Positions 14,747 through 54,044 of a stretch of DNA of 64,000 nucleotides are shown one piece after another. Positions within the stretch are counted from its first letter, which is position 1. The number at the start of each line of letters is the position of its first letter. The translations under genes and the position numbers were made by a program. The notes beneath the pieces were generated by a model. That model was not told the DNA's origin and searched no databases. It saw only the letters and a list, made by a program, of their open reading frames with translations. This stretch comes from Bordetella sp. H567. Its GTDB lineage: Bacteria > Pseudomonadota > Gammaproteobacteria > Burkholderiales > Burkholderiaceae_B. The stretch covers positions 2,678,084 to 2,742,083 of the forward strand of contig NZ_CP012334.1 of assembly GCF_001704295.1 (NCBI RefSeq). The letters run 5' to 3'.

Positions 14747-17515
14747 ATGGGGAATGCCATGAAGAACGGAACAGGCAGTGGCCAGCAACTGGACCATTTG
14801 TTTGCGAACTCGGCCGCGCGCGCGGATCGCTGGCGCGATCTGAATGCCAAGGCGCAGACTTGGGCCGCGCAAGCACGCGGCGGCAAGGAAAGCAGGGACG
14901 TGGACGCCGTGCGCGATGCGCTGTCGGCGCTACGGCCCATGGAAAGCTATTTCGCCTATCCCGGCGCGCATCTGCTTCGGGTCCTGGACGAGCGCATCGC
15001 CGATAGCGATGCCTTGGGCGCGGCAAGGTTGATCCTGCGCATGAGCAACGCGCTGCTCTCAGGCAGCTACCGCTACAACGACGGGGAATGGGAAGCCAGG
15101 GAGGACGCGGTCGATGAAGCGCCCGATCGCAGGCCCCCGGGGCTGGGCGGCGCCCAGGGACGGCGCCCGTATTTCGAGGCCTTGTTCGTTTCCCCGGCCC
15201 CGGCGGCACGCCTGCCTGCCATGGCCGAGGAAATCCGTCGTCTGCGACGGCCCGATGACTTCGCGATCTACGAACCTGTCATGGTCGGCAGCTTCGAGGA
15301 TGCCTTCCTGGCCGCGGTGCTGAACGGGAAGATAGAGGCGGTGGTGATCTACGACGGCATCCCGGTGCCGTCCCAGCATGACGTGCCGCTGCTGCGCGAC
15401 TTCCTGACGGTCTACCAGAACCTGGATACATCGACGGACGCGCCGCGCGAGGTCGGTGTCAAGCTGGCGAGCGTGCTGAAACGACTGCGTCCCGAGCTGG
15501 ACATTTATCTGCTGACCGACCGCGAGGTCGAGAAGCTGGCCGGCGATCGGGCGGCGTCGGCGATCCGGCGGGTCTTCTACGAGGTGGAAGAACCCATGGA
15601 AATACACCTGAATATCCTGGAGGGCGTGCAGGACCGGCAGGAGACGCCGCACTTCGACAATCTGAAGCGCTATGCCTCGCGTCCCATCAGTACCTTCCAT
15701 GCGCTGCCGATCGCGCGCGGAAAATCCATCATCAAATCGAACTGGATACGCGATTTCGGCGAGTTCTACGGCTTGAGCCTTTTCCTGGCGGAGACCTCGG
15801 CGACCACCGGCGGACTGGACAGCATGCTCGAGCCCACGGGCAATATCAAGGCCGCGCAGGAGAAGTTCGCCCGGGCCGTCGGGGCCGACCACGTGTTCTT
15901 CGTCACCAACGGCACTTCCACCTCCAACAAGATGGTCTACCAGGCGGTGACCAAGCCGGGCGATATCGTCATCGTCGATCGCAACTGCCATAAGTCCCAC
16001 CACTACGGCATGGTGCTCTCCGGCGCCCAGCCGCTGTATGTGGAAGCCTTCCCGATGACGGAGTATTCGATGTATGGCGCGGTGCCGCTGCGCACCATCA
16101 AGCAGGCGCTGCTGGCGCTGAAGGCCGAAGGCAGGCTGGACCGCGTGGCGATGGTGACCTTGACGAATTGCACCTTCGACGGCCATATCTACAACACGCG
16201 CCGGGTCATGGAGGAATGCCTGGCCATCAAGCCGGACCTGATATTTCTGTGGGACGAGGCGTGGTTCGGCTTCGCCCGGTGGTCGCCGTTTCTACGGCAG
16301 CGCACGGCCATGGGCGCGGCCGAAGCGCTGCAAGCCTGGCGCGCCGAACCGTCGGCGATGGAGGCCTGGAACGCACAGGCACAGGAGCTGGGCGAAGATC
16401 TCGATCCCCAGGATCCCCGCCTGCTGGATCGGCGCCTGGTGCCCGATCCCCGCAAGATGCGCATACGGGTGTACGAAACGGATTCCGTCCACAAGTCCAT
16501 GTCCTGCCTGCGACAAGGCTCCATCGTGGCCGTGCGTGACGAGGACTACAACCATCATGCCTCCGCCTTTCGCGAGGCGGTCTTCATCCACGCGTCGACC
16601 TCGCCGAACGCGCAGATTATCGGTTCGCTGGACGTGGCGCGCCGCCAGATGGAGCTGGAAGGCTACGAACTCGTGATGCGCGCGATCGAAATCGCGCTGG
16701 CCATCCGCAAGGCGGTCGCGGGTCATCCCCTGATCTCCAAGTATTTCAGCGTGCTGGGCGCGGACAAAATGGTTCCCGCGGAATTCCGGCCATCCGGATT
16801 CGTCGACTACCTGGCGCCTGGAACCAACTGGCTGACGGCGGCCAAGGCGATAAAGGAAGACGAGTTCGTGCTGGACCCGACGCGCATCACGCTGGTTTGC
16901 GGCACGGCGGGGTTTGACGGGACGAGCTTCAAGAACCTGCTGGCCTCCCGCTACAACATCCAGTTGAACAAGACTTCGCGCAACAGCGTGCTGTTACAGA
17001 GCAACATCAACAACACGCGCAGCGACGTGGCGCTGCTGATCAAGGTGCTGCTGGAAATCTCCGAGGAAATCGAAGCGGGGCTCCAGGAAGCAGGCGAGGC
17101 CGGTCAGGAGGCGTTTGCCGCCAAGGTGAGGAGCCTGATGGAGGACGTGCCCAACCTCCCGAATTTCAGTCGCTTCCATGACGGCTATCGCGAGGATCCA
17201 GGCAGCGACACGCTGGAGGGCGACATGCGTACCGCCTTCTTTGCCGCCTACAGCGAGGAGGATTGCGAGTATCTCCCCCTGACCGGCACGTCGCTGGACG
17301 ACAGACTGGCGAATGGTCCGGAACTGGTGTCGGCCAATTTCGTCATCCCCTATCCACCCGGCTTTCCCATCATGGTGCCGGGGCAGATCATCGACACGGA
17401 CACGATAGGGTTCATGCGCAAGCTGGATGTGAAGGAGATCCATGGTTACAACGCGGCACGAGGCATCAAGCTGATCAAGCCATCGATCATCGGGAAGACA
17501 CGCGGTACGCGCTAG
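14747..17515 (+). CDS. Large fold-III PLP-dependent amino-acid decarboxylase (Orn/Lys/Arg decarboxylase family)
   Basis: The 922-residue protein belongs to the bacterial inducible ornithine/lysine/arginine decarboxylase family. The order is: about 150 extra N-terminal residues, a response-regulator-like wing domain (about 165-310), the PLP domain with ETSATTGGLDSMLEPTG (near 348), WDEAWFGFARW (the Asp that contacts the PLP nitrogen) and DSVHKSMS (PLP lysine Lys583), then the C-terminal domain. Classic members are 710-760 residues. Here the extra length is the N-terminal block plus a charged insertion between WDEAWF and the PLP lysine. An ATG at 14759 with GGGGA before it is an alternative start. 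Two AspT-type exchangers follow, so it probably drives decarboxylation-coupled exchange. The substrate is unknown. Confidence 0.9.
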   Translation: MGNAMKNGTGSGQQLDHLFANSAARADRWRDLNAKAQTWAAQARGGKESRDVDAVRDALSALRPMESYFAYPGAHLLRVLDERIADSDALGAARLILRMSNALLSGSYRYNDGEWEAREDAVDEAPDRRPPGLGGAQGRRPYFEALFVSPAPAARLPAMAEEIRRLRRPDDFAIYEPVMVGSFEDAFLAAVLNGKIEAVVIYDGIPVPSQHDVPLLRDFLTVYQNLDTSTDAPREVGVKLASVLKRLRPELDIYLLTDREVEKLAGDRAASAIRRVFYEVEEPMEIHLNILEGVQDRQETPHFDNLKRYASRPISTFHALPIARGKSIIKSNWIRDFGEFYGLSLFLAETSATTGGLDSMLEPTGNIKAAQEKFARAVGADHVFFVTNGTSTSNKMVYQAVTKPGDIVIVDRNCHKSHHYGMVLSGAQPLYVEAFPMTEYSMYGAVPLRTIKQALLALKAEGRLDRVAMVTLTNCTFDGHIYNTRRVMEECLAIKPDLIFLWDEAWFGFARWSPFLRQRTAMGAAEALQAWRAEPSAMEAWNAQAQELGEDLDPQDPRLLDRRLVPDPRKMRIRVYETDSVHKSMSCLRQGSIVAVRDEDYNHHASAFREAVFIHASTSPNAQIIGSLDVARRQMELEGYELVMRAIEIALAIRKAVAGHPLISKYFSVLGADKMVPAEFRPSGFVDYLAPGTNWLTAAKAIKEDEFVLDPTRITLVCGTAGFDGTSFKNLLASRYNIQLNKTSRNSVLLQSNINNTRSDVALLIKVLLEISEEIEAGLQEAGEAGQEAFAAKVRSLMEDVPNLPNFSRFHDGYREDPGSDTLEGDMRTAFFAAYSEEDCEYLPLTGTSLDDRLANGPELVSANFVIPYPPGFPIMVPGQIIDTDTIGFMRKLDVKEIHGYNAARGIKLIKPSIIGKTRGTR

Positions 17516-17524
17516 CCTTCGCGC

Positions 17525-17546
17525 GGCGCCGGCTACGCCCGGCGCC
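17525..17546 (+). terminator. GC hairpin between decarboxylase and first exchanger (possible attenuator)
   Basis: A perfect 8-base stem, GGCGCCGG/CCGGCGCC, with a 6-base loop. It starts 9 bases after the decarboxylase stop. No T-run follows, so it may protect the upstream mRNA or partly terminate, giving less exchanger than enzyme. Confidence 0.45.
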
Positions 17547-17578
17547 ACGCCACTCAATAAAAGCAAGGAGAAACGGCC

Positions 17579-19279
17579 ATGGTATGGTTTTTCGGATTTC
17601 TGAAGGCGAACCCTTACGTGCTGCTCTTTTTTACCGTCGGGCTATCCGTGTGGCTGGGGCGGGTCACCATCAAGGGGTATGGCCTGGGCATGGTGGCGGG
17701 CGCCGTCATCGTGGGCGCCGTACTGTCCATCTGGGCGTCCACATACGGTATCAAGCTGCAGCTGGACAACTTCGTGCGGCTTCTTTTCTATTACCTGTTC
17801 ATGTACGGAGTCGGCCTGCGCGTCGGCCCGTCGTTCATCAATAGCCTGGGGCGCGACAGCCTGCGCTTTACCTTTCTGGCGGTGCTCGCGCCGGTGCTCG
17901 GCCTGGCCCTGGTCGTGATAGGGACGCGGCTGGCCGATCTGCCGGTAGGCGCGGCGGGGGGCATCCTGGCGGGCAGCCAGACGATGTCCGCGGCAATCGG
18001 TTCGGCCGAACAGGCCGTCCTCGACGGCGTGGTGGCCTTGCCCCCGGGCATGACGCCCGAAGCGGCGACGGGAATGATTGCCTTGTCCTACGGCATCACC
18101 TATATCTGGGGCACGGTCGGCATTATCCTGATCGTCAAATATTTGCCGCGCTGGTGGGGGCTGGACGCGAAGGCCGCGGCCAGGCAGTACGAGGAAGCGT
18201 ACGGCGTGAACAATGTCGATGCTGCCGGGCTGTCCGGTTACCGGGCGGGCGGCCTGCGCGCCTACCAGCTGGAAAACCCCGACACGGCGGGCAAGACCAT
18301 CGCCCAGTTCCGCCACGACCATCCGGAATACCGGGTCATCAACGTCCGCCGGGGCAATGAGTCGCTGGGCGCGGAACCCGATACCGTGCTGCGCTTGGGA
18401 GATGTCGTGGCGCTGGGGGGCCGTCTGGAAATGCTGACCGCGAAAATGGGGCTGCTGGGTCCGGAGGTGGCCGACCCGAAAGCGCTGAACGTGCCGCTGG
18501 ACCAGGCCGAAATCCTGGTCACGTCCAACGATGTTGTCGGCAAGCCGCTGAAGTCCTTTCGCGATTCGGATATCGCCGGACAGGTACAGCTGACCAAGAT
18601 CGAACGTTCGGGCGTACCCATGCCCATCGGCCTCGAAACCACGCTGAAGAAGCGTGACGTGCTGTTCATCACCGGCCTGAAGCCCGCGGTGACCCGCGCA
18701 GGGGAGATCTTCGGCATCATTGCCCGCCCCAGCACCGCGACGGATCTGTTGACCTTGGCGGCCGGCATGATCCTGGGCTTTCTGATCGGAAAGATCGACT
18801 TCCCGGCTTTCGGCAGCAGGGTGGGACTGGGAAACGCGGGCGGCCTGCTGGTGTCCGGAATCGTCGTTGCGTCGATTTCGTCGCGGCTGCGGTTCTTCGG
18901 CAGCACGCCCAATGCGGCACGCAACATCCTGGAGGACCTGGGCCTGGTGGTGTTCGTCGCCATCGTGGGCCTGAACGCCGGGGCGACCTTGCTGGAGCAA
19001 TTGACCGGCGCCATCGCATTGAAGATATTCCTGGTGGGCTTCGTCGCCTGCACCATTCCGCCCTTCATCGTCTGGGCGATCGGACACCACCTGTTCAAGA
19101 CCAATCCCGCGGTATTGATGGGCGTTACGGCGGGGGCGCGCAGCCATTCCGGACCGTGCCGCGAAGCGGCGAAGGAAATCGACAGTTCGGTACCCTGGAT
19201 CGGCTTCCCGGTCGCGTATGCGGTGTCGGGAGTGCTGCTGACGATATTCGGGTACTTCGCCATGATGTTGGCTCACTAG
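17579..19279 (+). CDS. AspT-family aspartate:alanine-type exchanger, copy 1
   Basis: The 566-residue membrane protein has the AspT/YidE layout: an N-terminal membrane half (about 1-185), a soluble middle with TrkA-C-like (RCK_C) lobes (about 200-380), and a C-terminal membrane half (about 385-566). The repeated GxxAGxx motifs are seen as GILAGSQTMSAAIGSA and GVTAGARSHSG. AspT couples entry of an amino acid with exit of its decarboxylation product. It follows the PLP decarboxylase by 63 bp with a good GGAG ribosome site and precedes a second paralogue. Exchange of the decarboxylase's substrate and product is inference from context. Confidence 0.9.
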   Translation: MVWFFGFLKANPYVLLFFTVGLSVWLGRVTIKGYGLGMVAGAVIVGAVLSIWASTYGIKLQLDNFVRLLFYYLFMYGVGLRVGPSFINSLGRDSLRFTFLAVLAPVLGLALVVIGTRLADLPVGAAGGILAGSQTMSAAIGSAEQAVLDGVVALPPGMTPEAATGMIALSYGITYIWGTVGIILIVKYLPRWWGLDAKAAARQYEEAYGVNNVDAAGLSGYRAGGLRAYQLENPDTAGKTIAQFRHDHPEYRVINVRRGNESLGAEPDTVLRLGDVVALGGRLEMLTAKMGLLGPEVADPKALNVPLDQAEILVTSNDVVGKPLKSFRDSDIAGQVQLTKIERSGVPMPIGLETTLKKRDVLFITGLKPAVTRAGEIFGIIARPSTATDLLTLAAGMILGFLIGKIDFPAFGSRVGLGNAGGLLVSGIVVASISSRLRFFGSTPNAARNILEDLGLVVFVAIVGLNAGATLLEQLTGAIALKIFLVGFVACTIPPFIVWAIGHHLFKTNPAVLMGVTAGARSHSGPCREAAKEIDSSVPWIGFPVAYAVSGVLLTIFGYFAMMLAH

Positions 19280-19324
19280 ACCGTGTCCTGACGACGCGCT
19301 GCCCCCGGGCAGCAAGGAGTAGCC

Positions 19325-21022
19325 ATGTCTTTCGAATGGGCCGTGGCATTGCTGCGCAAGTCGCCGGAGCTGGCGATGTTCCTGGCCGTGCCGATCGGCT
19401 ATGTCCTGGGCAATATCCGCCTGGGCCGGTTTTCGCTCGGGACCGTGACCGGGGCCTTGATCGCCGGCCTGGTCATCGGCCAGGCCGGTATCAACATCAA
19501 CCGCGAGCTGCGATGGAGCCTTTTCTACCTTTTCCTCTTCGCCAACGGGTATTCGGCGGGTCCGCAATTTTTCCAGGCGCTTAAACGGGACGGTGCCAAG
19601 CCCATGGTGCTGTCCGTGGTGGTTGCCGTCGTCGGCATCACCCTCGCGATGCTGATCGGGCGGCTGCTGGGACTGGATCCGGGAATGACCGCGGGCCTGT
19701 TCTGCGGCGCGCTGACGCAGTCCTCGGCCATCGGCACGGCGACGGACGCGATCATGGCATTGCCAATCTCGCCCGAGCTGCAAAGGCTGCTGGCCAGCCA
19801 CGTCGCAGTCGCGGATGCGCTGACGTATGTGTTCGGCGCGATCGGGTCCATCCTGTTCATCAGCGTATTCGCGCCCCGCATATTGCGTATCGATATGCGC
19901 GCCGAGGCCGTACTGCTGGAGGCGCAGTACGGCATCAAGACCATCGCCGAAGGCGTGGTATCGGGCTACCAGCGGTTTGCCGCCCGGGCGTATCTGGTGC
20001 GCGCCGACGCGGACTTCGCGGGCCGGCGGGTGGGCGAGGCCGAACGTGCCCATGTCGGCTTGCGCTATTTCGTGGAGCGCATCCGGCGAGGCGACCAGGA
20101 TATCCCTGTGCAGCAGGACACCGCGCTGCTGCCGGGCGACGTGGCGGTCGTCCATGGCCGCACGGAAGCGCTGGTGGCGGCCGGCCCGGGCTTCGGGACG
20201 GAAATGCACGAGGCCGGACTGCTGGACTTCCCGGTCGCCATCCTGCGGGTCGTGGTCACCAATCGCGCGCTGCTCGGGCCCACCCTGCAGGAGCTGGTCG
20301 ACGCCCGCACGCTGGAATTGCGCAGCGTCGGGCTGCGTACGCTGACGCGCGGCGGCCACGAAATTCCCTTCGGCGCCGCCAGCCGCCTGAACCGCGGCGA
20401 CATCGCGGAGCTGATCGGCCCACGGCATGCGGTGGAACGCGTGGCGGCGAGCGTCGGCCATCCGCTGCGGCCGACCAGCGCCACCAATCTCTCCATCGTC
20501 GGCTTCGGCATCCTGATCGGCGCCCTCATCGGGCTGCCGTATATCCAGGCCGGTGCCCTCAAGCTGACGCTGGGCAGCAGTGTGGGCGTGCTGGTGGGGG
20601 GACTGTTCTTCGGCTGGCTGCGCACGGTAAGGCCCACCCAGGGCGAAATTCCGCAGTCGGCGCTGGACTTCATGATCACCTTCGGATTGGCCGCGTTCGT
20701 GGCAGGGGCAGGGCTGCAGGCCGGGCCGGAGTTCCTGCATGCCGTCCAGGAACTGGGGCTGGCGATATTCCTGGCCGGCGTGGCGGTCACGCTCGCCCCG
20801 CTGGCCGCCGCATTACTGGTAGGCCGTTATGTGCTGCGTATGAATCCCTTGCTGCTGCTGGGCGCATTGGCGGGCGCGCAGACATTTACCGCCGCGCTGG
20901 CCGCCGTGCAGGAAAAGGCGGGCAGCAAGATTCCCGTGCTGGGCTATACGGTGCCGTACGCGGTCTCGAATATCCTGCTGACGACCGGCGGGGCAGTGGT
21001 GCTGACCCTGGCGGCAGGTTGA
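19325..21022 (+). CDS. AspT-family aspartate:alanine-type exchanger, copy 2
   Basis: A 565-residue paralogue of the upstream gene with the same membrane/RCK_C/membrane order. Signature segments are GALTQSSAIGTATDAI and LGALAGAQTFTAALAAVQEK, and the C-terminus reads VPYAVSNILLT. AAGGAG lies shortly before the ATG. The copies differ clearly: here the motif glycine region is followed by Thr/Ala, in copy 1 by SHSGPCREAA. The tandem pair may form a heteromer or handle different substrates. The stop abuts, with no gap, the stop of a convergent gene. Confidence 0.9.
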   Translation: MSFEWAVALLRKSPELAMFLAVPIGYVLGNIRLGRFSLGTVTGALIAGLVIGQAGININRELRWSLFYLFLFANGYSAGPQFFQALKRDGAKPMVLSVVVAVVGITLAMLIGRLLGLDPGMTAGLFCGALTQSSAIGTATDAIMALPISPELQRLLASHVAVADALTYVFGAIGSILFISVFAPRILRIDMRAEAVLLEAQYGIKTIAEGVVSGYQRFAARAYLVRADADFAGRRVGEAERAHVGLRYFVERIRRGDQDIPVQQDTALLPGDVAVVHGRTEALVAAGPGFGTEMHEAGLLDFPVAILRVVVTNRALLGPTLQELVDARTLELRSVGLRTLTRGGHEIPFGAASRLNRGDIAELIGPRHAVERVAASVGHPLRPTSATNLSIVGFGILIGALIGLPYIQAGALKLTLGSSVGVLVGGLFFGWLRTVRPTQGEIPQSALDFMITFGLAAFVAGAGLQAGPEFLHAVQELGLAIFLAGVAVTLAPLAAALLVGRYVLRMNPLLLLGALAGAQTFTAALAAVQEKAGSKIPVLGYTVPYAVSNILLTTGGAVVLTLAAG

Positions 21023-23692: not shown

Positions 23693-24439
23693 ATGGACCC
23701 AGCACCCCGGCGCACAGGCCTGAGCGGACCGACCCTGGTTCGCCTGCTCGCCCGCCTCGCGGACATCGACGTCTCCGAACCCAGGCAGTCCCTGCCGGAC
23801 CGGCTCAGCCTCTGGCTGGGCTGGACGGACGCGATCGCCCTGTCCACGGTGCTGAACAGCAATCCGCCCGTTGCGGCCGCGCCAGCCCAGGAAGCCGATG
23901 ACACCGCGGAGCAGGAATGCGCCCGTGTGCGGACCGCGCTGGCCAACGCCATCATGGAGAAAAATCGCGCCCCCAGGGCCACGGACGACCACGCGCGCAA
24001 CCGCGCCCGGCGGCCGTCCGGCGTCCCGCAGGCGCCGGTCGACTACGCCATTTATCGCCAGCGGTATCTGTCGCTGCAACAGGCCATGGAGACCGGCATC
24101 GCCGGCCTGCGCACGCGGCTGCGCGGCATGATGGCCGGCAGGACGCCGGCCATGACGCAGCTCGCGGCCGTGGACGCCATCATGGAAGGGGCGCTGGGCG
24201 CGCGCGAGCACAACGCCTTGGCGGCGGTGCCGGGGCTGCTCGAAACCCATTTCCACCGCCTGCGCCGCGCGGAGGCGGCCGCCCTGGCCGAGGCGGAATC
24301 CGCCGGCCAGGCGGCCCACATAAAGCCTGGCGCGTGGCTGGACGCTTTCCGCCAGGACATGCGTGGCGTACTGCTCGCCGAACTGGATATTCGTTTTCAG
24401 CCTGTCGAAGGCCTGCTTGCGGCGCTGCGCGCCAGCTAA
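23693..24439 (+). CDS. DUF3348-type protein, first gene of a stator-like operon
   Basis: The 248-residue soluble protein matches what I know as DUF3348, found mainly in Burkholderiales and without an assigned function. It has an N-terminal conserved region (LSGPTLVRLLARLADIDVSEP), a variable linker rich in Arg/Ala (about 65-115), and a helical C-terminal half (YAIYRQRYLSLQQAMETGI; WLDAFRQDMRGVLLAELDI). There is no signal peptide. It is followed by the DUF802 gene after 12 bp, so it is probably a cytoplasmic partner of the DUF802/OmpA membrane complex. The assignment to the family is from memory of its pattern and gene order. Confidence 0.8.
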   Translation: MDPAPRRTGLSGPTLVRLLARLADIDVSEPRQSLPDRLSLWLGWTDAIALSTVLNSNPPVAAAPAQEADDTAEQECARVRTALANAIMEKNRAPRATDDHARNRARRPSGVPQAPVDYAIYRQRYLSLQQAMETGIAGLRTRLRGMMAGRTPAMTQLAAVDAIMEGALGAREHNALAAVPGLLETHFHRLRRAEAAALAEAESAGQAAHIKPGAWLDAFRQDMRGVLLAELDIRFQPVEGLLAALRAS

Positions 24440-24451
24440 ACCCGGGATGTC

Positions 24452-27028
24452 ATGACCAGAATTCTCTCTATCGCTGCTTTTCTCGTGGGGTTGGCCGTCG
24501 TCGGCTGGATCGGCGCCGGCTATGTCGGCTCCAACCCCCTGGCGCTGGCGGTAACGGCGCTGATCGGCGTGGCCTATCTGGCGGGTACCTGGGAACTGCG
24601 GCGCTACCAGCAGGCGACCGCAACGCTGGCCCGCGCCCTGGCGGCGCTGTCGGACGCGCCGGCGGGCCTGGCGGGCTGGCTGGACCAGCTGCATCCCAGC
24701 TTGCGCAGCCCGGTGCGCCTGCGGGTGGAGGGCGACCGCGTGGCACTGCCGGGGCCCGCGCTGACACCCTATCTGGTCGGCCTGCTGGTGCTGCTCGGCA
24801 TGCTGGGCACATTCCTGGGCATGGTGGCCACGCTACGCGGCACCGGCATCGCCCTGGAAAGCGCCACCGACCTGCAAGCCATACGGGCATCGCTGGCCGC
24901 ACCGGTCAAGGGCCTGGGCTTCGCTTTCGGCACCTCCGTCGCCGGGGTGGCGACCTCGGCCATGCTGGGGCTGCTGTCGGCCTTGTGCCGGCGCGAGCGG
25001 ATACTGGCTGCCCAGCAGCTGGACACGGGCATCGCCACCACGCTGCGCGGCCACACGCTGGCCCATCAGCGAGACGAAACGTTCCGGCTGCTGCAGCGAC
25101 AGGCCGAAACGATGCCCGTGCTCGTCGACCGCCTGCAGGCGATGGTGACGGGCATGGAGCAGCGCAACCAGGCGCTGAACGCGCAACTGGCGGACGGCAT
25201 GGCCGCCATGGAACGCCAGCACGCGGCCCTGAGCGAGCGGCTGGCCGCGGGACAGGCCGCGCTGGACCAGCGGCTGGCGTCCGGACAACAGGCCTTGAAC
25301 GAACGCCTGGGGGCGGGGCAGGAAGCCTTCCACGGCAAAACCGAGGCCGCCTATGCCGGACTGGCCGCATCGGTGCAGCAGACGCTGAAGGAAAGCGCGG
25401 CCGAAAGCGCGCGGCTGGCCGCGACCGCGCTGCAGCCCGTCGTCGAAGCGATGATGGCCACCTTGTCCGGCCGCTTCGAAACCACGGCCGCCGCCGTGGG
25501 CGATGTCTGGAACCAGGCATTGACGCAGCACCGGCAGGCCAACGACACGCTGGCGCAGGATCTGCGCGCGACGCTGGACCGCTATGCCGATACGTTCGAA
25601 CAACGCTCCACGGGCTTGATCGAGGGCGTGGCGGCCAGGATGGACAGCGCGACCGGCGGCATGACGCAGGCGTGGGCCGATGCGCTCGCGCGGCAGGAGC
25701 AGACCAACGGTCGCCTGGCGCAGGACAACCAGCAGGCCTTGGCCGCCGCCGCGGCCACCTTCGAACGGCATTCCGCGACGCTGCTGGAAAAGGTGGAAGC
25801 CCATGCGTCGGCCTTGCTCGAGAAGGTCGAAGGACAGTCCGTATCCCTGCTCGACAAGGTCGGAGGCCATTCCGTGTCGCTGATCGACAAGATCGAAGGG
25901 CATTCCGCGTCGCTGATCGACAAGGTGGAAGGGCACTCCGCGTCGTTGATCGACAAGGTGCAAGGGCATTCCGTATCGCTGGTCGACAAGGTCGAAGGAC
26001 ATTACCTGGCGCTGCTCGACAAGGTCGAAGGACATTCCCTGTCGCTGCTCGGGCGCGCGGACACCCACTCCTCGTCGCTGATCGAAAAGGTGGATGGACA
26101 CTTGTCGTCGCTCGCCGGCCGGATGGAAGACCATGCCTCGGCATTGCGGCAGGGCCTGGGGCAGCACGCCACGTCCGTGCTGGAAAACATCCAGCAGCAT
26201 TCCGCCGCGCTCCTGCAGGCGGTGGAACAATCGCAGGCGCGCCAGCAGGCCACGCTGGAATCGCGCGACCAGGAGCGGCTGGACGCCTGGACCGGCAAGC
26301 TGGACGCCATCGCCCATGAACTGAGCGAGCAATGGCGGCAAACCGGCGAGCAGACCGCCGCCCGTCAGCAGGAGATCTGCGAAACGCTGTCGCGTACCGC
26401 GCGGGATATCACCGAGCAGACGCAGGCGCGGGCGCGCGACACCATCGCGGAAATCGAACGTTTGGTGCAGGCCGCCTCCGAAGCGCCGAAGGCCGCCGCC
26501 GACGTCGTGGCCGAGCTGCGCCAGAAGCTGTCCGACACCATGGTGCGCGACAACGCCATGCTGGAAGAGCGCGGCCGCTTGCTGGATACGCTGGGCACGC
26601 TGCTGGACGCCGTGAACCGTGCGTCCACGGAACAACGCGACGCCGTGGACGCCTTGGTCGCGACGTCCTCGGACCTGCTGGCGCGTGTCGGCGGCCAGTT
26701 CACCGACACCCTGGAGGCCGAAACCGCCAAGCTGGCCGAAGCGGCCGGCCAGGTCTCCGGCAGCGTGGTCGAAGTCGCCAGCCTGGGCGACGCCTTCGGC
26801 ACGGCCGTGCAGGCCTTCGGCGAATCGAACGAAAAACTGATGGCGCATCTGCAGCGCATCGAGGGCGCGCTGGAAAAATCCATCGCGCGCAGCGACGAAC
26901 AGCTTGCCTACTATGTCGCCCAGGCCCGCGAAGCAATCGACCTGAGCGTCATGTCCCAGAAGCAAATCATCGAAGACCTGCAACGGCTCGCCGAACAGCG
27001 GGCATCGGCCGGTAGCGAAGCGGCATGA
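24452..27028 (+). CDS. DUF802 protein: MotA/TolQ/ZorA-like membrane core with long His-phased coiled coil
   Basis: The 858-residue protein has hydrophobic segments at about 5-25, 28-47, 104-128 and 153-178. The last two carry GMLGTFLGM (116-124) and GLGFAFGTSVAGVATSA. This pattern is like MotA/TolQ/ExbB and especially ZorA: a GLLGTF-type helix, then a polar-glycine helix ending at a basic boundary. About 650 residues of cytoplasmic coiled coil follow. It includes short 11-residue repeats near 255-295 and fourteen contiguous 11-residue units at 436-589, 13 with His at position 5. The C-terminus is also helical. It overlaps the OmpA/MotB-like gene by 4 bp. I infer a proton- or ion-driven complex; no function is established. 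Confidence 0.85.
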   Translation: MTRILSIAAFLVGLAVVGWIGAGYVGSNPLALAVTALIGVAYLAGTWELRRYQQATATLARALAALSDAPAGLAGWLDQLHPSLRSPVRLRVEGDRVALPGPALTPYLVGLLVLLGMLGTFLGMVATLRGTGIALESATDLQAIRASLAAPVKGLGFAFGTSVAGVATSAMLGLLSALCRRERILAAQQLDTGIATTLRGHTLAHQRDETFRLLQRQAETMPVLVDRLQAMVTGMEQRNQALNAQLADGMAAMERQHAALSERLAAGQAALDQRLASGQQALNERLGAGQEAFHGKTEAAYAGLAASVQQTLKESAAESARLAATALQPVVEAMMATLSGRFETTAAAVGDVWNQALTQHRQANDTLAQDLRATLDRYADTFEQRSTGLIEGVAARMDSATGGMTQAWADALARQEQTNGRLAQDNQQALAAAAATFERHSATLLEKVEAHASALLEKVEGQSVSLLDKVGGHSVSLIDKIEGHSASLIDKVEGHSASLIDKVQGHSVSLVDKVEGHYLALLDKVEGHSLSLLGRADTHSSSLIEKVDGHLSSLAGRMEDHASALRQGLGQHATSVLENIQQHSAALLQAVEQSQARQQATLESRDQERLDAWTGKLDAIAHELSEQWRQTGEQTAARQQEICETLSRTARDITEQTQARARDTIAEIERLVQAASEAPKAAADVVAELRQKLSDTMVRDNAMLEERGRLLDTLGTLLDAVNRASTEQRDAVDALVATSSDLLARVGGQFTDTLEAETAKLAEAAGQVSGSVVEVASLGDAFGTAVQAFGESNEKLMAHLQRIEGALEKSIARSDEQLAYYVAQAREAIDLSVMSQKQIIEDLQRLAEQRASAGSEAA
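25757..26218 (+). repeat. Fourteen tandem 33-bp coding repeats (11-residue units) in the DUF802 gene
   Basis: Units start every 33 bases from 25757. The core is well conserved at the DNA level from 25790 to about 26053; outer units are diverged. The typical unit is KVEGHSASLID. Position 5 is His in all units except the third, which has Gln. The repeat is in frame and encodes a right-handed (hendecad) coiled coil. Confidence 0.92.
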
Positions 27029-27813
27029 GCGACGAGATCGACGGCGGCATCGAGCCCGCGGTCCCCACCTGGGCGGTGTTCGGCGACCTGATGTCGGCGG
27101 CGCTGGGGGCCTTCGTCCTGATCCTGGTCGGCGTGATCGGCCTGCAACTGCAGCTTTCGGCCAAGCTGGACGAAGAGGTCAAGCAGCGCCAGGCCGAAAC
27201 GCAGCGCCGACAGACACTGGAACAGGCCCTGGCCGTGCCCCTGGCCGCTGGCCGCGTGACGCTGGTGAACGGCCGCATCGGCATCAGCGGCAGCGTGCTC
27301 TTCGCCCTGAATTCCAACCAGCTGCAGCCCGAGGGACGGGACGTCCTGAAAAGCCTGGCGCAGCCGCTGTCCGACTACCTGCGCAACCGCGACGAGATCC
27401 TGATGGTCAGCGGGTTTACCGACAACCAGCAGGTGCACGGGAATACGCGCGGCTTTGCCGATAACTGGGAGCTTTCCGCCCAACGCGCACTGACGGTGAC
27501 GCGCGCCTTGATCGACGACGGCGTGGATCCGAAGTCCGTCTTCGCGGCCGCCTTCGGCGCCGAGCAGCCCGTGGCGTCGAATGCCGATGCGGAGGGCAGG
27601 GCCAGGAACCGGCGCGTGGAAATCGCGCCCGTGCCCAGGCTGGCCGGGCAAGGACAGGCCGCGCCGGGCCAGGCGGCGGAAGACGCGCGGGGCGCGCCCG
27701 GGCCGAGTCCATCGCAAGGGCCGTCCGCACAGGAACAAGCAGGTCCAACCCCGGCGGCCCAGCGCCAGCCCGAGGCGGCGGGCCCGCCCGCCATCAAGGC
27801 TCCGCCCCGGTGA
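27025..27813 (+). CDS. OmpA/MotB/ZorB-like single-pass peptidoglycan-binding protein
   Basis: The 262-residue protein has a short cytoplasmic N-terminus, then one membrane helix beginning TWAVFGDLMSAALGAFVLIL. Asp21 sits where MotB has Asp32 and ZorB its ion-carrying Asp. After a coiled linker (about 43-75) comes an OmpA domain (about 85-205) with LFALNSNQLQPEG, SGFTDNQ and the peptidoglycan-contact block ARNRRVEI. The last 55 residues are Pro/Gln/Ala-rich. It overlaps the DUF802 gene (ATGA) and the DUF2894 gene (GTGA) by 4 bp each, which argues for fixed stoichiometry. It is probably the peptidoglycan-anchored partner of the DUF802 motor-like subunit; this is inference. Confidence 0.88.
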   Translation: MSDEIDGGIEPAVPTWAVFGDLMSAALGAFVLILVGVIGLQLQLSAKLDEEVKQRQAETQRRQTLEQALAVPLAAGRVTLVNGRIGISGSVLFALNSNQLQPEGRDVLKSLAQPLSDYLRNRDEILMVSGFTDNQQVHGNTRGFADNWELSAQRALTVTRALIDDGVDPKSVFAAAFGAEQPVASNADAEGRARNRRVEIAPVPRLAGQGQAAPGQAAEDARGAPGPSPSQGPSAQEQAGPTPAAQRQPEAAGPPAIKAPPR

Positions 27814-28493
27814 GCGACGACGCGAAAAACCCGGACAGCGCTTGCGATCCCCTGGCCCTGCTGGCCGCATGGCGCGCGCAGGGGGCCGACCGGCTCAACC
27901 CTATCCGCTTTCATTTGATCGACGCGTTGTCGCGGCGCGCCGCGGCGCAGCGCGGGCATACCCGACGCCTGCTGGACGACCGTCTGGCGACGCTGGTGCA
28001 AGCCTACAAGGGGGAAGTGGCGGCCGCCGATAGTCGCGCCATGATCCAGCCGCAAGACCCCGCACCGGCAGGCCCGGCGTCGGCGCCCGCCCAGGCGGGA
28101 CCGCTGGCCGAGCTGGTGGCCCGGCTCGCCGACCGGCGACCGGCGACGCCGCAGGACGCCGATGACGCCGCCATACCGCCGGCTCCGTCCACCTATCCCG
28201 AGTTGCCGCTGCTGGACTACTTCCGCGACACCTGGTCGCGCTACAGCACCCGGCATCAGTTGCGGCAATCCGAGGAACGCGTGCCCGAAAATGCCGGCCC
28301 GCTGAATTCCAGCCTGCTTGTGCACCGCGCGCTATCCCTGATGCGCGAGGTCTCCCCCGAGTACCTGCATCAGTTCCTGTCCTATGTCGATGCGCTCTCC
28401 TGGATGGAGCAGGCCACCCGCGTCGACCTCCTGATGGACAAGGAGGGCACCCGTAGCGGGCCTTCCAGGAAAACCGCACGCCGCTCCCGTTAG
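27810..28493 (+). CDS. DUF2894-type protein, last gene of the stator-like operon
   Basis: The 227-residue soluble protein matches the family I know as DUF2894. Conserved segments are DPLALLAAWRAQGADRLNPIRFHLIDAL near the N-terminus and LLDYFRDTWSRYSTRHQLRQS plus LMREVSPEYLHQFLSYVDALSWME in the second half. A Pro/Ala linker (about 78-125) separates them, and the tail is basic. The start is a GTG overlapping the OmpA stop. There is no signal or membrane segment. It always seems to travel with DUF802/OmpA genes as far as I recall, so it is probably a cytosolic effector or assembly factor. Function is unknown. Confidence 0.8.
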   Translation: MSDDAKNPDSACDPLALLAAWRAQGADRLNPIRFHLIDALSRRAAAQRGHTRRLLDDRLATLVQAYKGEVAAADSRAMIQPQDPAPAGPASAPAQAGPLAELVARLADRRPATPQDADDAAIPPAPSTYPELPLLDYFRDTWSRYSTRHQLRQSEERVPENAGPLNSSLLVHRALSLMREVSPEYLHQFLSYVDALSWMEQATRVDLLMDKEGTRSGPSRKTARRSR

Positions 28494-51166: not shown

Positions 51167-51378
51167 CTGCCGCGACCCCAAGGCGCTGCGTGTTACAACC
51201 CCGCCGGCCACGCCACGGCGCCGGCATTCCTTCAACCGCCAGGTTTCGGGGGTTTTTCGCCCCTTTTTACGGCCGTTGGCATCGCGATCCGCTCACTAGA
51301 ATGGACCCCGTCCCGTCAAGTCGTGCGGGATCCGGCTGGCCTGACGGCCTGGACCGGCCGCCTTCCATGGGCCTCACA

Positions 51379-52287
51379 ATGAATGCTTCAACCCTGATCG
51401 GCATCGCCGTCGCCATCGCGACCCTGGCGGCTGCCATATTTTCCTCTTCGCCGGACGCCATCGCGTTCGTCAATCTTCCCGGGCTGGGCATCGTGGTGGG
51501 CGGCACCGCGGCGGCGGTATTCATCGGCTATCCGATGACGGAAGTCCGCCGCATCGGGCCGCTGCTGCGGCGGGTGTTCCGCAACGAGAAGCTGGACACC
51601 CAGCGCGACATCGACGAACTGGTCGCGCTGGCCCACAGCTGGGCGGGATCCAACGTGCACAACGTCGAACGCGAATTGCAGAAGGTGACCAATCCTTTTC
51701 TGCGCACCGGCGTCCAGCTGATCATCGACAACACCCCGGAAGAACAGATCGTCGAGCTGTTGCAGTGGCGCATCGCCCGCATGCGCGCCCGTGAACAGGC
51801 CGAGGCGCAAATGTTCCGCACCATGGCCAGCTTCGCGCCGGCCTTCGGCATGCTCGCCACGCTGATCGGCCTGGTCAACCTGATGACCGTACTGGGCTCG
51901 CAAGGCATGGACGTCATCGGCAAGCAAATGGGCATCGCCCTGATCGCGACCTTCTACGGCATCCTGCTGGCCAACCTGATCTGCAAGCCCATCGCGATCA
52001 AGCTGGAACGCCGCACCGAACAGCGGCTGGTGCTGATGAACATGGTGCTGCAGGGCATATCGATGATGTGCGAGCGGCGCGGCCCGGCCATGGTGCGCGA
52101 GACGCTCAATTCCTTCATGCAGAACTTCGAGGACGAAATCCGCGAGCAGCCGCCCCGGAAAAAAGGCAAGGCCGCCTCGGCCGCCGGTGCCGCCGGCGCG
52201 GCATCGCGGGCCGCGCCCAGCCTGGCCGGCCAGGGATTGCCGGATGCCGCGTCCTTGCGCAACCGGGCGAGCTCGCAGCGGCCATGA
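51379..52287 (+). CDS. MotA/PomA-type proton-channel subunit (non-flagellar context)
   Basis: The 302-residue membrane protein has four hydrophobic segments: about 5-21, 33-50, 150-172 and 182-202. The MotA features are the Pro helix FAPAFGMLATLIGLVNLM (Pro154) and IALIATFYGILLANLICKPIA. The large cytoplasmic loop between helices 2 and 3 contains VTNPFLRTGVQLIIDNTP. The C-terminal tail is Lys/Ala/Gly-rich and longer than usual. The start at 51379 is favoured; 51367 is in frame too. It overlaps its MotB-type partner by 4 bp. No flagellar gene is near, so it may be a stator for another device. Confidence 0.88.
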   Translation: MNASTLIGIAVAIATLAAAIFSSSPDAIAFVNLPGLGIVVGGTAAAVFIGYPMTEVRRIGPLLRRVFRNEKLDTQRDIDELVALAHSWAGSNVHNVERELQKVTNPFLRTGVQLIIDNTPEEQIVELLQWRIARMRAREQAEAQMFRTMASFAPAFGMLATLIGLVNLMTVLGSQGMDVIGKQMGIALIATFYGILLANLICKPIAIKLERRTEQRLVLMNMVLQGISMMCERRGPAMVRETLNSFMQNFEDEIREQPPRKKGKAASAAGAAGAASRAAPSLAGQGLPDAASLRNRASSQRP

Positions 52288-53162
52288 GTTCCACGCATTC
52301 CCGCGCATCCTGGATAGACGTCGCGATACAGCGCAAGGCGGAGGAAGAACGCCTGCAGCGCGAACGCAGCAAGACGGTGCGCCGCAACCGGTACGAGCGC
52401 TGGCATGTGCCCGAAACCCTGGACAGGGAGCCGGACAACTGGCTGATGACGTACCTGGACCTGATCACGCTGCTGTTGGCCCTGTTCGTGGTGATGCTGG
52501 CGCTGACGCGGATCGGCCCCGGCCCGGGCGCCAAGCCGCCGGAGGTGGCGGCCGGCGTCAGCCTGGCCAAGCTGCCGCCGGGACCCGTCGAACCATGGGC
52601 CGCGGACCTGCCCAAGATCCCGGAAGCATGGTCGCGGCTGCCGGACCCGCCACCGCCCGAAGCCACCGCGACGGCGCCGACCGAACCGCTGGAAAAGCCG
52701 GCGCCACCGGTCAAGATGCCGACGGCCGAGGAACTGGGCCTGGCCGATCTGGGCAAGTCGGTGGACGTGCAGATCAACCGCCGGACGGTCAGCTTCAGGA
52801 TCAGCAACGAACTGCTGTTCACGTCGGGGCAGGCCACCCTCAGCAAGGAAGGCGGCCCGCTGATCAAGAAGCTGGCCGACGTCATCAATCGCAGCAAGTT
52901 CCCCGTGTCGGTCGAAGGCCACAGCGACAACGTTCCCATCCTGACGCGGCAGTTCGCCTCCAACTGGGACTTGTCGACCAGCCGCGCCACATCGGTCCTG
53001 CGTGAATTGGTGCATGACGGCGTCGATCCGCAACGCCTGCGCGCGGTGGGCTACGCGGATACCCAGCCGCTGCAAAGCAATGACACGCAGGCGGGCAGGG
53101 CGGCCAACCGGCGCGTGGAGCTGATCATGCGTATCGTGCCGGACAAGGATACGGCGCGGTAA
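52284..53162 (+). CDS. MotB/OmpA-type stator partner protein
   Basis: The 292-residue protein begins with a charged cytoplasmic stretch (about 1-52). Then comes a membrane helix, NWLMTYLDLITLLLALFVVM, in which Asp59 takes the place of the ion-carrying Asp of MotB. A Pro-rich periplasmic linker (about 80-150) leads to an OmpA domain (about 165-285) with SVEGHSDNVPI, NWDLSTSRATSVL and GRAANRRVELI for peptidoglycan binding. The start overlaps the MotA-type stop. The N-terminal extension, longer than in E. coli MotB, might bind a partner. Confidence 0.9.
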   Translation: MSSTHSRASWIDVAIQRKAEEERLQRERSKTVRRNRYERWHVPETLDREPDNWLMTYLDLITLLLALFVVMLALTRIGPGPGAKPPEVAAGVSLAKLPPGPVEPWAADLPKIPEAWSRLPDPPPPEATATAPTEPLEKPAPPVKMPTAEELGLADLGKSVDVQINRRTVSFRISNELLFTSGQATLSKEGGPLIKKLADVINRSKFPVSVEGHSDNVPILTRQFASNWDLSTSRATSVLRELVHDGVDPQRLRAVGYADTQPLQSNDTQAGRAANRRVELIMRIVPDKDTAR

Positions 53163-53177
53163 GGCGGTGCCTGTACG

Positions 53178-54044
53178 TCACGCCCCTGCGGCGGCTTGCC
53201 GTTGCGGTGGACGGCTGCCCTGTTCTTCGGCGGACAGTATCCGCGTCAGGTAAGCGTGGTATTCCGTATGGCATCTCTCGTCCTCCACCGTGGCCTGGGC
53301 CCGCACGATCAATGCGCCAGGCGAACTGTGCAAGCTACTGAATACGAGCTGGCCGTCGCGCAGCGCGAAGTTCGAGGAGGCGCTGAGCGTCAGCTTGGGA
53401 CCGCGGTTTTCGCCGACATACAGCGCGACCAGGCCCAGGGGCAGCGTGGAAGGCAGTGACTGCAGGGCGTTGCGGGTGGCATCGATGCTGATCAGGCCGG
53501 CCGGCAGCGTCTCCGGCAAGGCGGACAGGCTGTTATACGAGACATCCAGCCTTTGAAGCTTGCCAGGCAGAAAAGCCGGCAAGGTTTCGAACTGGTTCTG
53601 CGCAAGAATCAGCGTTTGGATGCCGCATGGCAGCGTCGGCAGCCTGGTCAAGCGGTTTTTCGATAGATCGAGCTCGACCACATCGGGCAGCAGCGGCGGC
53701 GCCTGCCGCAGGTTCAGATTGCTCAGATTCAGTTTGGTGGCGCCGCGCTGCGCCAACGCGGCTTCGACTCTGCGGCGTGCCTCCGCACGCTTTTCCCCGG
53801 CGGCCCCTTCGCGGACATACCGGTCCATGATCGCGGCCATCCTGGCCTTCAGATTGGCCATTCCATCCACGGGCGCGCCCGGCACCGGGCTGGGCGCCGG
53901 GTCTACCGCGTTCAGCAAAGTCCCGATTTCCTTGGCGGTGCCATTGGCAGTACCGAATGACGCGGTAGTGCAGGTGCCGGCGAGCCCAGGCGGTTCGAGG
54001 GGGGCGACTGAGAATGAATAGGACAGCGTAGTAGCAGTGGTCAT
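53178..54044 (-). CDS. LPX-type leucine-rich-repeat protein (candidate secreted effector)
   Basis: The 288-residue protein has about 90 N-terminal residues with no recognised domain or signal peptide. About six short LRR units of the bacterial LPX kind follow (residues 105-200: VVELDLSKNRLTRLPTLP; LQRLDVSYNSLSALPETLP), and then a 60-residue C-terminal region. Similar LRRs occur in IpaH/SspH-type and YopM-type effectors delivered by type III secretion. The catalytic NEL ubiquitin-ligase domain is absent. It is a single gene, convergent with the MotB-type gene, with a weak ribosome site. Effector status is a guess from the repeat type. Confidence 0.82.
   Translation of the reverse strand: MTTATTLSYSFSVAPLEPPGLAGTCTTASFGTANGTAKEIGTLLNAVDPAPSPVPGAPVDGMANLKARMAAIMDRYVREGAAGEKRAEARRRVEAALAQRGATKLNLSNLNLRQAPPLLPDVVELDLSKNRLTRLPTLPCGIQTLILAQNQFETLPAFLPGKLQRLDVSYNSLSALPETLPAGLISIDATRNALQSLPSTLPLGLVALYVGENRGPKLTLSASSNFALRDGQLVFSSLHSSPGALIVRAQATVEDERCHTEYHAYLTRILSAEEQGSRPPQRQAAAGA

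What the first reader, a model, noticed from the sequence alone, without database searches (positions are those of the whole stretch)
23693..28493. DUF3348-DUF802-OmpA-DUF2894 operon looks like an ion-driven stator/Zorya-class complex
Seen: four genes in one direction, with a 12-bp gap and then two 4-bp overlaps. The DUF802 protein has membrane helices with GMLGTFLGM and a following GxxFAFGTSxAGVATS helix, the pattern of MotA/TolQ/ZorA. Its partner has one helix starting WxxFGDLM with an Asp at the MotB/ZorB position, then an OmpA peptidoglycan domain. Known: MotAB, TolQR, ExbBD and ZorAB are 5:2 rotary ion-driven units; ZorA has a long cytoplasmic tail. Inferred: this is a related motor with a 650-residue tail and two unknown cytosolic partners. 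It lacks the Zorya helicase and nuclease genes, so its job (defence, envelope, contact) is open.
Basis: partly seen in the sequence, partly recalled or inferred. Interest (0 to 1): 0.85.

Follow-up and report, generated by a model that had tools for sequence, protein, structure and literature searches.

The report
Zorya type III anti-phage motor operon
This is a four-gene membrane motor already named Zorya type III, one relative of which protects bacteria from viruses; here it behaves like a fixed part of some whole genera and has a tail that grows by repeated modules, both unusual for a defence system.

Summary
In detail: four co-directional genes, a 12-bp gap, two 4-bp overlaps, and the described ZorA/ZorB-like core. 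The motor inference is right, but "its job is open" is not: DUF3348-ZorA-ZorB-DUF2894 is Zorya type III, named in 2021 and reported anti-phage in E. coli for a Stenotrophomonas copy. Profile hits tie the core to type I ZorAB; the membrane Asp21 is kept in 107 of 107 aligned rows. The four genes encode no recognised helicase or nuclease; both accessory proteins model as helical without a confident fold match.

Two properties I did not find in the papers searched. (1) Core-like distribution: DUF3348 in 40 of 40 good Achromobacter genomes and 83 of 86 of another genus, against 18 of 40 for a restriction-family control; none found in phage or viral collections. (2) ZorA's tail has a conserved tip and a variable middle; where tandem arrays occur, their units (mostly 11 to 131 residues) are near-whole numbers of helical turns. 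Whether its native job is defence remains testable.

The parts
23693..24439 (+). DUF3348 protein, 248 aa (PADLOC-DB name ZorG3; called ZorF in the two papers). All-helical model.
   Evidence: PF11828 E 2.4e-89; PADLOC ZorG3 E 5.9e-98; AlphaFold2 pLDDT 87.7, pTM 0.83
24452..27028 (+). ZorA type III, 858 aa: membrane core (about residues 1-200) and long coiled-coil tail
   Evidence: PADLOC ZorA3 E 0; cross-hit ZorA1 E 9.9e-13, best stretch 110-189; PDB 8vvn_C E 1.1e-6
24779..25051 (+). Motor core of ZorA (residues 110-200) with invariant T120, T161, S162
   Evidence: T120, T161, S162 in 107 of 107 aligned rows
25761..26112 (+). 33-bp (11-residue) tandem repeats in the variable middle of the ZorA tail, about 9 copies
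   Evidence: TRF, 79% and 76% matches, scores 293 and 210; window residues 451-570 face gaps in about 99% of 103 aligned rows
26432..26971 (+). Conserved distal tip of the ZorA tail (residues 661-840), proposed docking site
   Evidence: mean commonest-residue frequency 0.73-0.87 per 30 residues, gap fraction 0.00, 103 rows
27025..27813 (+). ZorB type III, 262 aa: one membrane helix with Asp21, then OmpA peptidoglycan-binding domain (residues 92-196)
   Evidence: PADLOC ZorB3 E 2.4e-113; PF00691 E 7.2e-20; D21 in 107 of 107 rows
27810..28493 (+). DUF2894 protein, 227 aa (PADLOC-DB name ZorF3; called ZorG in the two papers), with a basic C-terminal tail
   Evidence: PF11445 E 1.5e-61; PADLOC ZorF3 E 2.4e-76; net charge of last 25 residues at least +3 in 81 of 86 rows

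Best explanation
A Zorya type III operon. Shown here: four-gene anatomy, family membership, homology of the core to type I ZorAB, conserved candidate ion-path residues, and a coiled-coil-like tail with a fixed head, a fixed tip and a variable middle. Known for types I and II (PMC11890865): ZorA5B2 is an ion-driven inner-membrane motor; peptidoglycan binding by ZorB, the ZorA tail and ion flow matter for function. Inferred: in type III the motor is held inactive until the envelope is disturbed, as by phage entry; ion flow past ZorB Asp21 then turns or shifts ZorA, and the coiled-coil tail carries this as a shaft to its conserved tip, where the two helical accessory proteins dock. Since the operon encodes no recognisable helicase or nuclease, the output must come through these adaptors: most likely the DUF2894 protein binds DNA (or acidic lipid) through its basic C-terminus and holds or blocks incoming DNA, or recruits a host enzyme. 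Identity about 0.95; motor activity about 0.85; shaft and tip docking about 0.5; DNA binding by DUF2894 about 0.3.
For: PADLOC type III models for all four genes. ZorA-head and ZorB profiles reach ZorA and ZorB chains in the PDB. In two type-I-like zorAB loci of the same bacterial family, Asp21 aligns with an Asp in both ZorBs, and the GTFLG and TS positions align in one of the two ZorAs. D21, T120, T161, S162 invariant in 107 of 107 rows, four of which repeat a genome. Operon order kept in 109 of 113 and in 40 of 40 loci, 38 of them new. Tail hydrophobic period 3.67, power 21.3 against a maximum of 10.9 in 500 shuffles; tip nearly as conserved as the membrane core while the middle varies; tandem-unit lengths keep helical phase, 0 of 20000 random sets as good. 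DUF2894 basic C-terminus in 81 of 86. Reported anti-phage activity of a relative in E. coli (PMC8565338, passages).
Against: No activity was measured here. Pfam MotA_ExbB is not listed for this ZorA at E up to 1, and the ZorA-head profile did not hit the second type-I-like ZorA locus at E up to 1. In Burkholderia cenocepacia K56-2, knocking down predicted defence genes (a Zorya III is among the predictions) did not change fitness under phage Bcep176, although its first gene or two changed expression; the authors give other possible reasons, such as a phage the systems do not act on (PMC12584637, passages). Distribution is core-like. No fold clue for the accessory proteins; the DUF2894 model has pTM 0.46. 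Basic C-termini also occur for other reasons.
Confidence: 0.78

Rival explanations
1. The native role is a housekeeping one: a core, long-resident envelope or chromosome-associated motor of these bacteria, and the phage protection seen in E. coli is a side effect of expressing an ion-driven membrane complex.
For: DUF3348 in 6 of 6 genomes of the window's genus, 41 of 43 Achromobacter (40 of 40 good ones; the misses are 78% and 57% complete), 87 of 91 of another genus (83 of 86 good), one copy per genome as far as the rows show; 18 of 40 for HSDR_N as a patchy control. No PADLOC hit at 1e-5 among 10 flanking ORFs. No match in 50,697 phage records and none confirmed in viral contigs; 27 of 72,556 plasmid records, none conjugative, the 25 listed all 0.59-3.5 Mb replicons. 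No effect in the K56-2 CRISPRi screen.
Against: A type III system tested in E. coli lowered plaquing (PMC8565338). No match in 135 of 200 genomes and 26 of 43 genera of the family, so dispensable over longer times; 3 of 13 good genomes of the genus of B. hinzii lack it and 3 of 86 of the other genus. Core defence genes are possible.
Confidence: 0.25
2. ZorAB is a gated ion leak: on infection the accessory proteins open it, the membrane is depolarised and the cell stops or dies (close to the regulator reading of the PADLOC authors).
For: No enzyme family was recognised in the operon; both accessory proteins model as small and helical; ZorF and ZorG proposed as regulators of ZorAB in PMC8565338.
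Against: A long phase-keeping tail with a conserved tip is not needed for a leak; in types I and II the tail matters, and type II has a separate nickase effector (PMC11890865 abstract).
Confidence: 0.25
3. An ordinary flagellar, Tol or Ton stator, unrelated to Zorya.
For: OmpA domain shared with MotB; the best PDB hits of the ZorB profile are OmpA parts of MotB and YiaD.
Against: No MotA_ExbB hit for this ZorA; the only PDB relative of its head is a ZorA; the window has a separate MotA/MotB-like pair.
Confidence: 0.02

Closest known systems
Zorya type III (Payne et al. 2021, PMC8565338)
   Same: All four genes: DUF3348, ZorA, ZorB, DUF2894, in one operon.
   Different: Nothing in gene content. 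Added here: core-like distribution in some genera and the modular tail.
Zorya type I (ZorABCD)
   Same: ZorA head and ZorB with membrane Asp and OmpA domain; long cytoplasmic tail.
   Different: No ZorC or ZorD hit among the four genes or the 10 neighbouring ORFs tested. ZorA3 tails vary widely (457 to 1029 residues after residue 200), while component size is said to be well conserved within types I and II (PMC11890865).
Zorya type II (ZorABE)
   Same: ZorA2 cross-hits to E 5.8e-9.
   Different: No ZorE hit. Type II ZorAB is described as substantially smaller than type I (PMC11890865).
Flagellar MotAB
   Same: General 5:2 stator plan (inferred), OmpA domain.
   Different: No Pfam MotA_ExbB match listed for ZorA3; extra tail and partners.

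Membership tests
Zorya type III | ZorA: MotA/TolQ/ExbB-like membrane protein with cytoplasmic tail | tested here: met
   PADLOC ZorA3 E 0, cross-hit ZorA1 E 9.9e-13; PDB ZorA chain E 1.1e-6
Zorya type III | ZorB: membrane helix with ion-carrying Asp plus OmpA domain | tested here: met
   ZorB3 E 2.4e-113; D21 107 of 107 rows; aligned to an Asp of two type-I-like ZorBs. That it carries ions was not tested.
Zorya type III | DUF3348 and DUF2894 genes flanking zorAB | tested here: met
   order kept in 109 of 113 loci
Zorya type III | Anti-phage activity | not testable with these tools
   reported for one relative in E. coli (PMC8565338)
Zorya (all types) | ZorA5B2 stoichiometry and ion flow | not testable with these tools
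   known for types I and II (PMC11890865); no multimer prediction offered
Zorya type I | ZorC and ZorD genes | tested here: not met
   no such PADLOC hit in the four genes or 10 neighbouring ORFs
Zorya type II | ZorE gene | tested here: not met
   no such PADLOC hit
Flagellar MotAB | MotA_ExbB domain (PF01618) | tested here: not met
   not listed at E up to 1 (filters drop most hits above 0.1); the 5 own-genome hits lie elsewhere
Mobile anti-phage system (general habit, not a defining feature) | Patchy presence within genera, mobile elements or defence islands | tested here: not met
   but patchy between genera

The most novel reading that the evidence does not exclude
Zorya type III is not primarily a mobile phage defence but a core, long-resident ion-driven rotary machine of Burkholderiales and Xanthomonadales-type bacteria, with a phase-locked, extendable coiled-coil driveshaft whose conserved tip drives two new helical cytosolic proteins; phage protection is one consequence of a still unnamed native function, or it is a rare case of an innate immune motor fixed in whole genera.
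Probability: 0.3. Interest if true: 0.75.

Novelty: already known. Interest (0 to 1): 0.42.

Why it matters
It corrects an 'unknown motor' to a named system and shows where that system is odd. Published work calls the distribution of the three Zorya types typical of anti-phage systems (PMC11890865); for type III, counts in two whole genera say otherwise, so its native role can be tested by deletion in hosts that nearly all carry it. The modular tail gives a natural length series in some genera: relatives whose ZorA tails differ by whole modules while head and tip stay alignable. This would let one ask whether the tail is a shaft, a ruler or a tether.

Tried and rejected
Multiples of 11: I expected within-genus tail-length differences to be multiples of 11 residues. 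They are not overall (28 of 257 pairs of distinct lengths, 0.109 against 0.091 expected); only the window's genus stands out (7 of 15). The better description is larger tandem units that keep helical phase, but 63 of 147 genes hold no array of at least 60 bp, and ZorA length does not correlate with residues covered by 33n-bp arrays (Spearman 0.04, n 147). In the 20 loci of g193 and in 13 of 19 Variovorax the best array, if any, was a short one of two to two and a half copies (units of 11 residues or less), so modules do not explain length there.

Vertical descent is not clean: in the quick tree (SH-aLRT support only) Variovorax is not one clade, the window's genus is split, and one Xanthomonadales-type clade sits among Burkholderiales, so transfers probably occurred. 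No species tree was built. In the window's own genus 4 of 6 loci share neighbours and the window and L040 do not; in g13 the 3 loci share none next to the operon. The class-wide sample shows DUF3348 is rare outside these groups: 8 of 370 genomes, the window's included. The type I control scored only the best 6 candidates per genome.

Counts and dropped rows: one search used 107 of 121 sources for residue conservation; dropped were 8 cut by contig ends, 4 with over-long ORF calls (L138, L142, L150, L158), and L088 and L090, where the zorA ORF stops over 1 kb before zorB. Two loci (L167, L173) repeat L090 and L084. Searches used 147 zorA genes (repeats and interrupted ones left out; the over-long calls kept); one search used 112 genes of 10 groups. 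One search used 133 TRF rows of at least 60 bp, in which one array can appear twice, with 20 distinct unit lengths (7, 9 and 10 residues kept although they fit poorly), and set aside 1 row whose period is not a multiple of 3. Units of related lineages are not independent, which the random sets do not allow for. Alignments A1-A4 used 70, 86, 67 and 66 rows chosen for diversity and length.

Literature: claims of 'not found in print' rest (open-licence PubMed Central only). PMC8565338, PMC11890865, PMC12584637 and PMC11953036 were read as passages, not whole; PMC13064858 was seen in listings only. That 8vvn and 8qyd are type I Zorya structures is recalled, not read in a call.
Full report
Observation. 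The four ORFs, the 12-bp gap and the two 4-bp overlaps are as described. Pfam names them DUF3348, DUF802 (best stretch in the tail, residues 338-390), OmpA and DUF2894.

Identity. PADLOC-DB models for Zorya type III match all four proteins: DUF3348 E 5.9e-98, ZorA3 E 0, ZorB3 E 2.4e-113, DUF2894 E 2.4e-76. Those models were made for this family, so they show membership, not kinship to types I and II. Kinship rests on other results. ZorA1 models hit with best stretch 110-189 at E 9.9e-13, and ZorB1 models hit the OmpA protein at E 5.1e-18, one of them (E 3.6e-17) over residues 14-200. NCBIfam ZorA models hit at E 6.5e-8 to 5.2e-5, below their cut-offs. A profile of 67 ZorA heads finds one ZorA chain in the PDB (8vvn_C, E 1.1e-6) and otherwise only a coiled-coil fragment at E 0.19. 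A profile of 66 ZorBs aligns from the membrane helix to the OmpA domain with 8vvn_B (positions 7-200, E 7e-8) and 8qyd_F (10-200, E 1.4e-6), although its best hits are OmpA-only MotB and YiaD chains (60 of 66 hits shown). Of two type-I-like zorAB loci from the same bacterial family, one ZorA aligns at the GTFLG and TS positions and the other was not hit at E up to 1; both ZorBs align an Asp with Asp21.

What is in print. Type III was defined in 2021 from 6,401 instances; a Stenotrophomonas nitritireducens copy lowered plaquing of at least one phage in E. coli (PMC8565338, passages). Types I and II are ZorA5B2 ion-driven motors with a bundled tail; [quoted passage not shown] In B. cenocepacia K56-2 the first one or two genes of Zorya I and Zorya III changed expression on infection, but no predicted defence gene altered fitness in a CRISPRi screen with one phage (PMC12584637, passages). 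The papers call the DUF3348 protein ZorF and the DUF2894 protein ZorG; PADLOC-DB has them the other way round.

Conservation. The order DUF3348-zorA-zorB-DUF2894 holds in 109 of 113 complete loci of 121 examined, and in 20 of 20 Achromobacter loci and 20 of 20 of a genus of another order (38 of these 40 are new; one Achromobacter locus has 1,027 bp between the zorA and zorB ORFs). ZorB D21 and ZorA T120, T161 and S162 are invariant in 107 of 107 rows.

Accessory proteins. The DUF3348 profile finds no PDB sequence at E up to 1 and the DUF2894 profile only weak coiled-coil-like ones, best E 0.032. The DUF3348 model is all-helical and confident (pLDDT 87.7, pTM 0.83); the DUF2894 model is helical and loosely packed (pLDDT 78.6, pTM 0.46). 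No fold match is convincing. DUF2894 has a conserved basic end: net charge of at least +3 in the last 25 residues of 81 of 86 rows, against 10% of all 25-residue windows. No enzyme family was recognised in the operon.

The tail. After residue 200 the ZorA tail is 457 to 1029 residues long, median 630, in 107 rows. Its hydrophobicity peaks at 3.65-3.68 residues per turn in 78 of 107 rows; in the window the peak at 3.67 has power 21.3, against at most 10.9 in 500 shuffles. Along the protein, the membrane core (91-180; 0.87-0.91) and the distal tip (661-840; 0.73-0.87) are conserved and ungapped, while the window's residues 451-570 face gaps in about 99% of 103 rows. The window's stretch is a 33-bp tandem array of about 9 copies. 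Of 147 zorA genes, 84 hold a tandem array of at least 60 bp. The best unit differs by lineage: 131 residues in 29 of 30 Achromobacter, 87 in 5 of 11 Cupriavidus and 5 of 19 Variovorax, 62 in 3 of 11 Cupriavidus and 4 of 6 Pandoraea, 11 in the window; the 20 loci of g193 show none of these. Where arrays exist, lengths tend to step by whole units: in Cupriavidus 600 and 662 residues (from the FGTS motif) with 1.9-2.0 and 3.0 copies of 62; in Variovorax 628 and 718 with 2.0 and 2.9 copies of 87; in Achromobacter 939 and 1070, a difference of 131, with 3.3-4.0 and 4.3-4.6 copies. Other steps are not whole units (Achromobacter 1041 and 1048), and Cupriavidus 886 and 973 differ by 87 although TRF gives 4.8-4.9 and 5.0 copies. 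The 20 distinct unit lengths lie close to whole turns of a 3.635-residue period (R 0.76; 0 of 20000 random sets as good, the period being scanned in both; without multiples of 11, 1 of 20000; at the heptad value 3.5 R is 0.10). So the tail is extended or cut by in-frame duplication that keeps helical phase, as a continuous coiled-coil shaft requires, while its absolute length is free. This argues against a strict ruler.

Distribution. The second and third rows that some genomes show are pieces of one gene. Controls: the HSDR_N restriction family is in 18 of 43 Achromobacter (18 of 40 good); a ZorA type I model is in 2 of 200 family genomes at E up to 1e-20, none above its cut-off. DUF3348 has no match in 50,697 phage records and no confirmed relative in the viral contigs. 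Of 72,556 plasmid records 27 match: 20 non-mobilizable, 7 mobilizable, none conjugative; the 25 listed are 0.59-3.5 Mb, the size of chromids. A type-I-like ZorA query matched 27 plasmid records, 3 of them conjugative; only 1 covers 80% of the query, and the five listed, three of them annotated as ZorA, are 37-513 kb.

Neighbourhood and tree. Of ten flanking ORFs chosen at 14.7-35.2 kb, nine have Pfam hits to enzymes, transporters and the like and one has none; none has a PADLOC hit at 1e-5. G+C of the stretch (0.69) is within the window's range of 0.63-0.70. Within genera the place is often shared: Achromobacter 8 of 8 the same two downstream neighbours, g43 4 of 4, g36 3 of 3, g15 6 of 7; in the window's genus 4 of 6 share and the window does not; in g13 none of 3; between genera it mostly differs. 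In the quick tree of 103 rows, Achromobacter (12 rows), Pandoraea, g43, g36, g15 with one named Bordetella and a Xanthomonadales-type group (12, 99) are clades; Cupriavidus is at 87; Variovorax and the window's genus are not clades. This fits long residence within genera with some transfer between them.

Verdict. Membership in Zorya type III is met on every feature testable here. It works, most likely, like types I and II up to the tail tip; beyond that the output is unknown because no enzyme is encoded. The system itself is already known. The core-like distribution and the phase-keeping modular tail are what I would pass on.

Noticed in passing
window 51190-53162 (+): A second stator-like pair: a MotA_ExbB-family ORF (own-genome hit at 51679-52041) followed by an ORF with a WLMTYLDLITLLLALFVVML helix and an OmpA-like end, of flagellar MotA/MotB kind (the second judged by eye).
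   Followed up: partly
window 24489-24587 (-): ARAGORN calls a tRNA-Gly (anticodon acc) antisense inside zorA, over the coding region of its N-terminus; probably a false call.
   Followed up: no
L088 and L090/L167 (Cupriavidus and Achromobacter): The zorA ORF ends more than 1 kb before zorB, so the gene looks interrupted there. Described only.
   Followed up: no
genus g36 (genus of B. hinzii): The three good genomes without DUF3348 are small (3.7-4.1 Mb), which may mean loss with genome reduction; one 3.7-Mb genome keeps it.
   Followed up: no
PMC8565338 and PMC11890865 against PADLOC-DB 2.0.0: The names ZorF and ZorG are swapped: the papers give ZorF to DUF3348, PADLOC-DB gives ZorG3 to DUF3348.
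   Followed up: yes
window 53178-54044 (-): ORF with what look like leucine-rich repeats next to the MotA/MotB-like pair (by eye).
   Followed up: no
window 14747-21022 (+): An Orn/Lys/Arg decarboxylase ORF followed by two Asp-Al_Ex family permeases, perhaps an acid-resistance or amino-acid exchange cluster.
   Followed up: no
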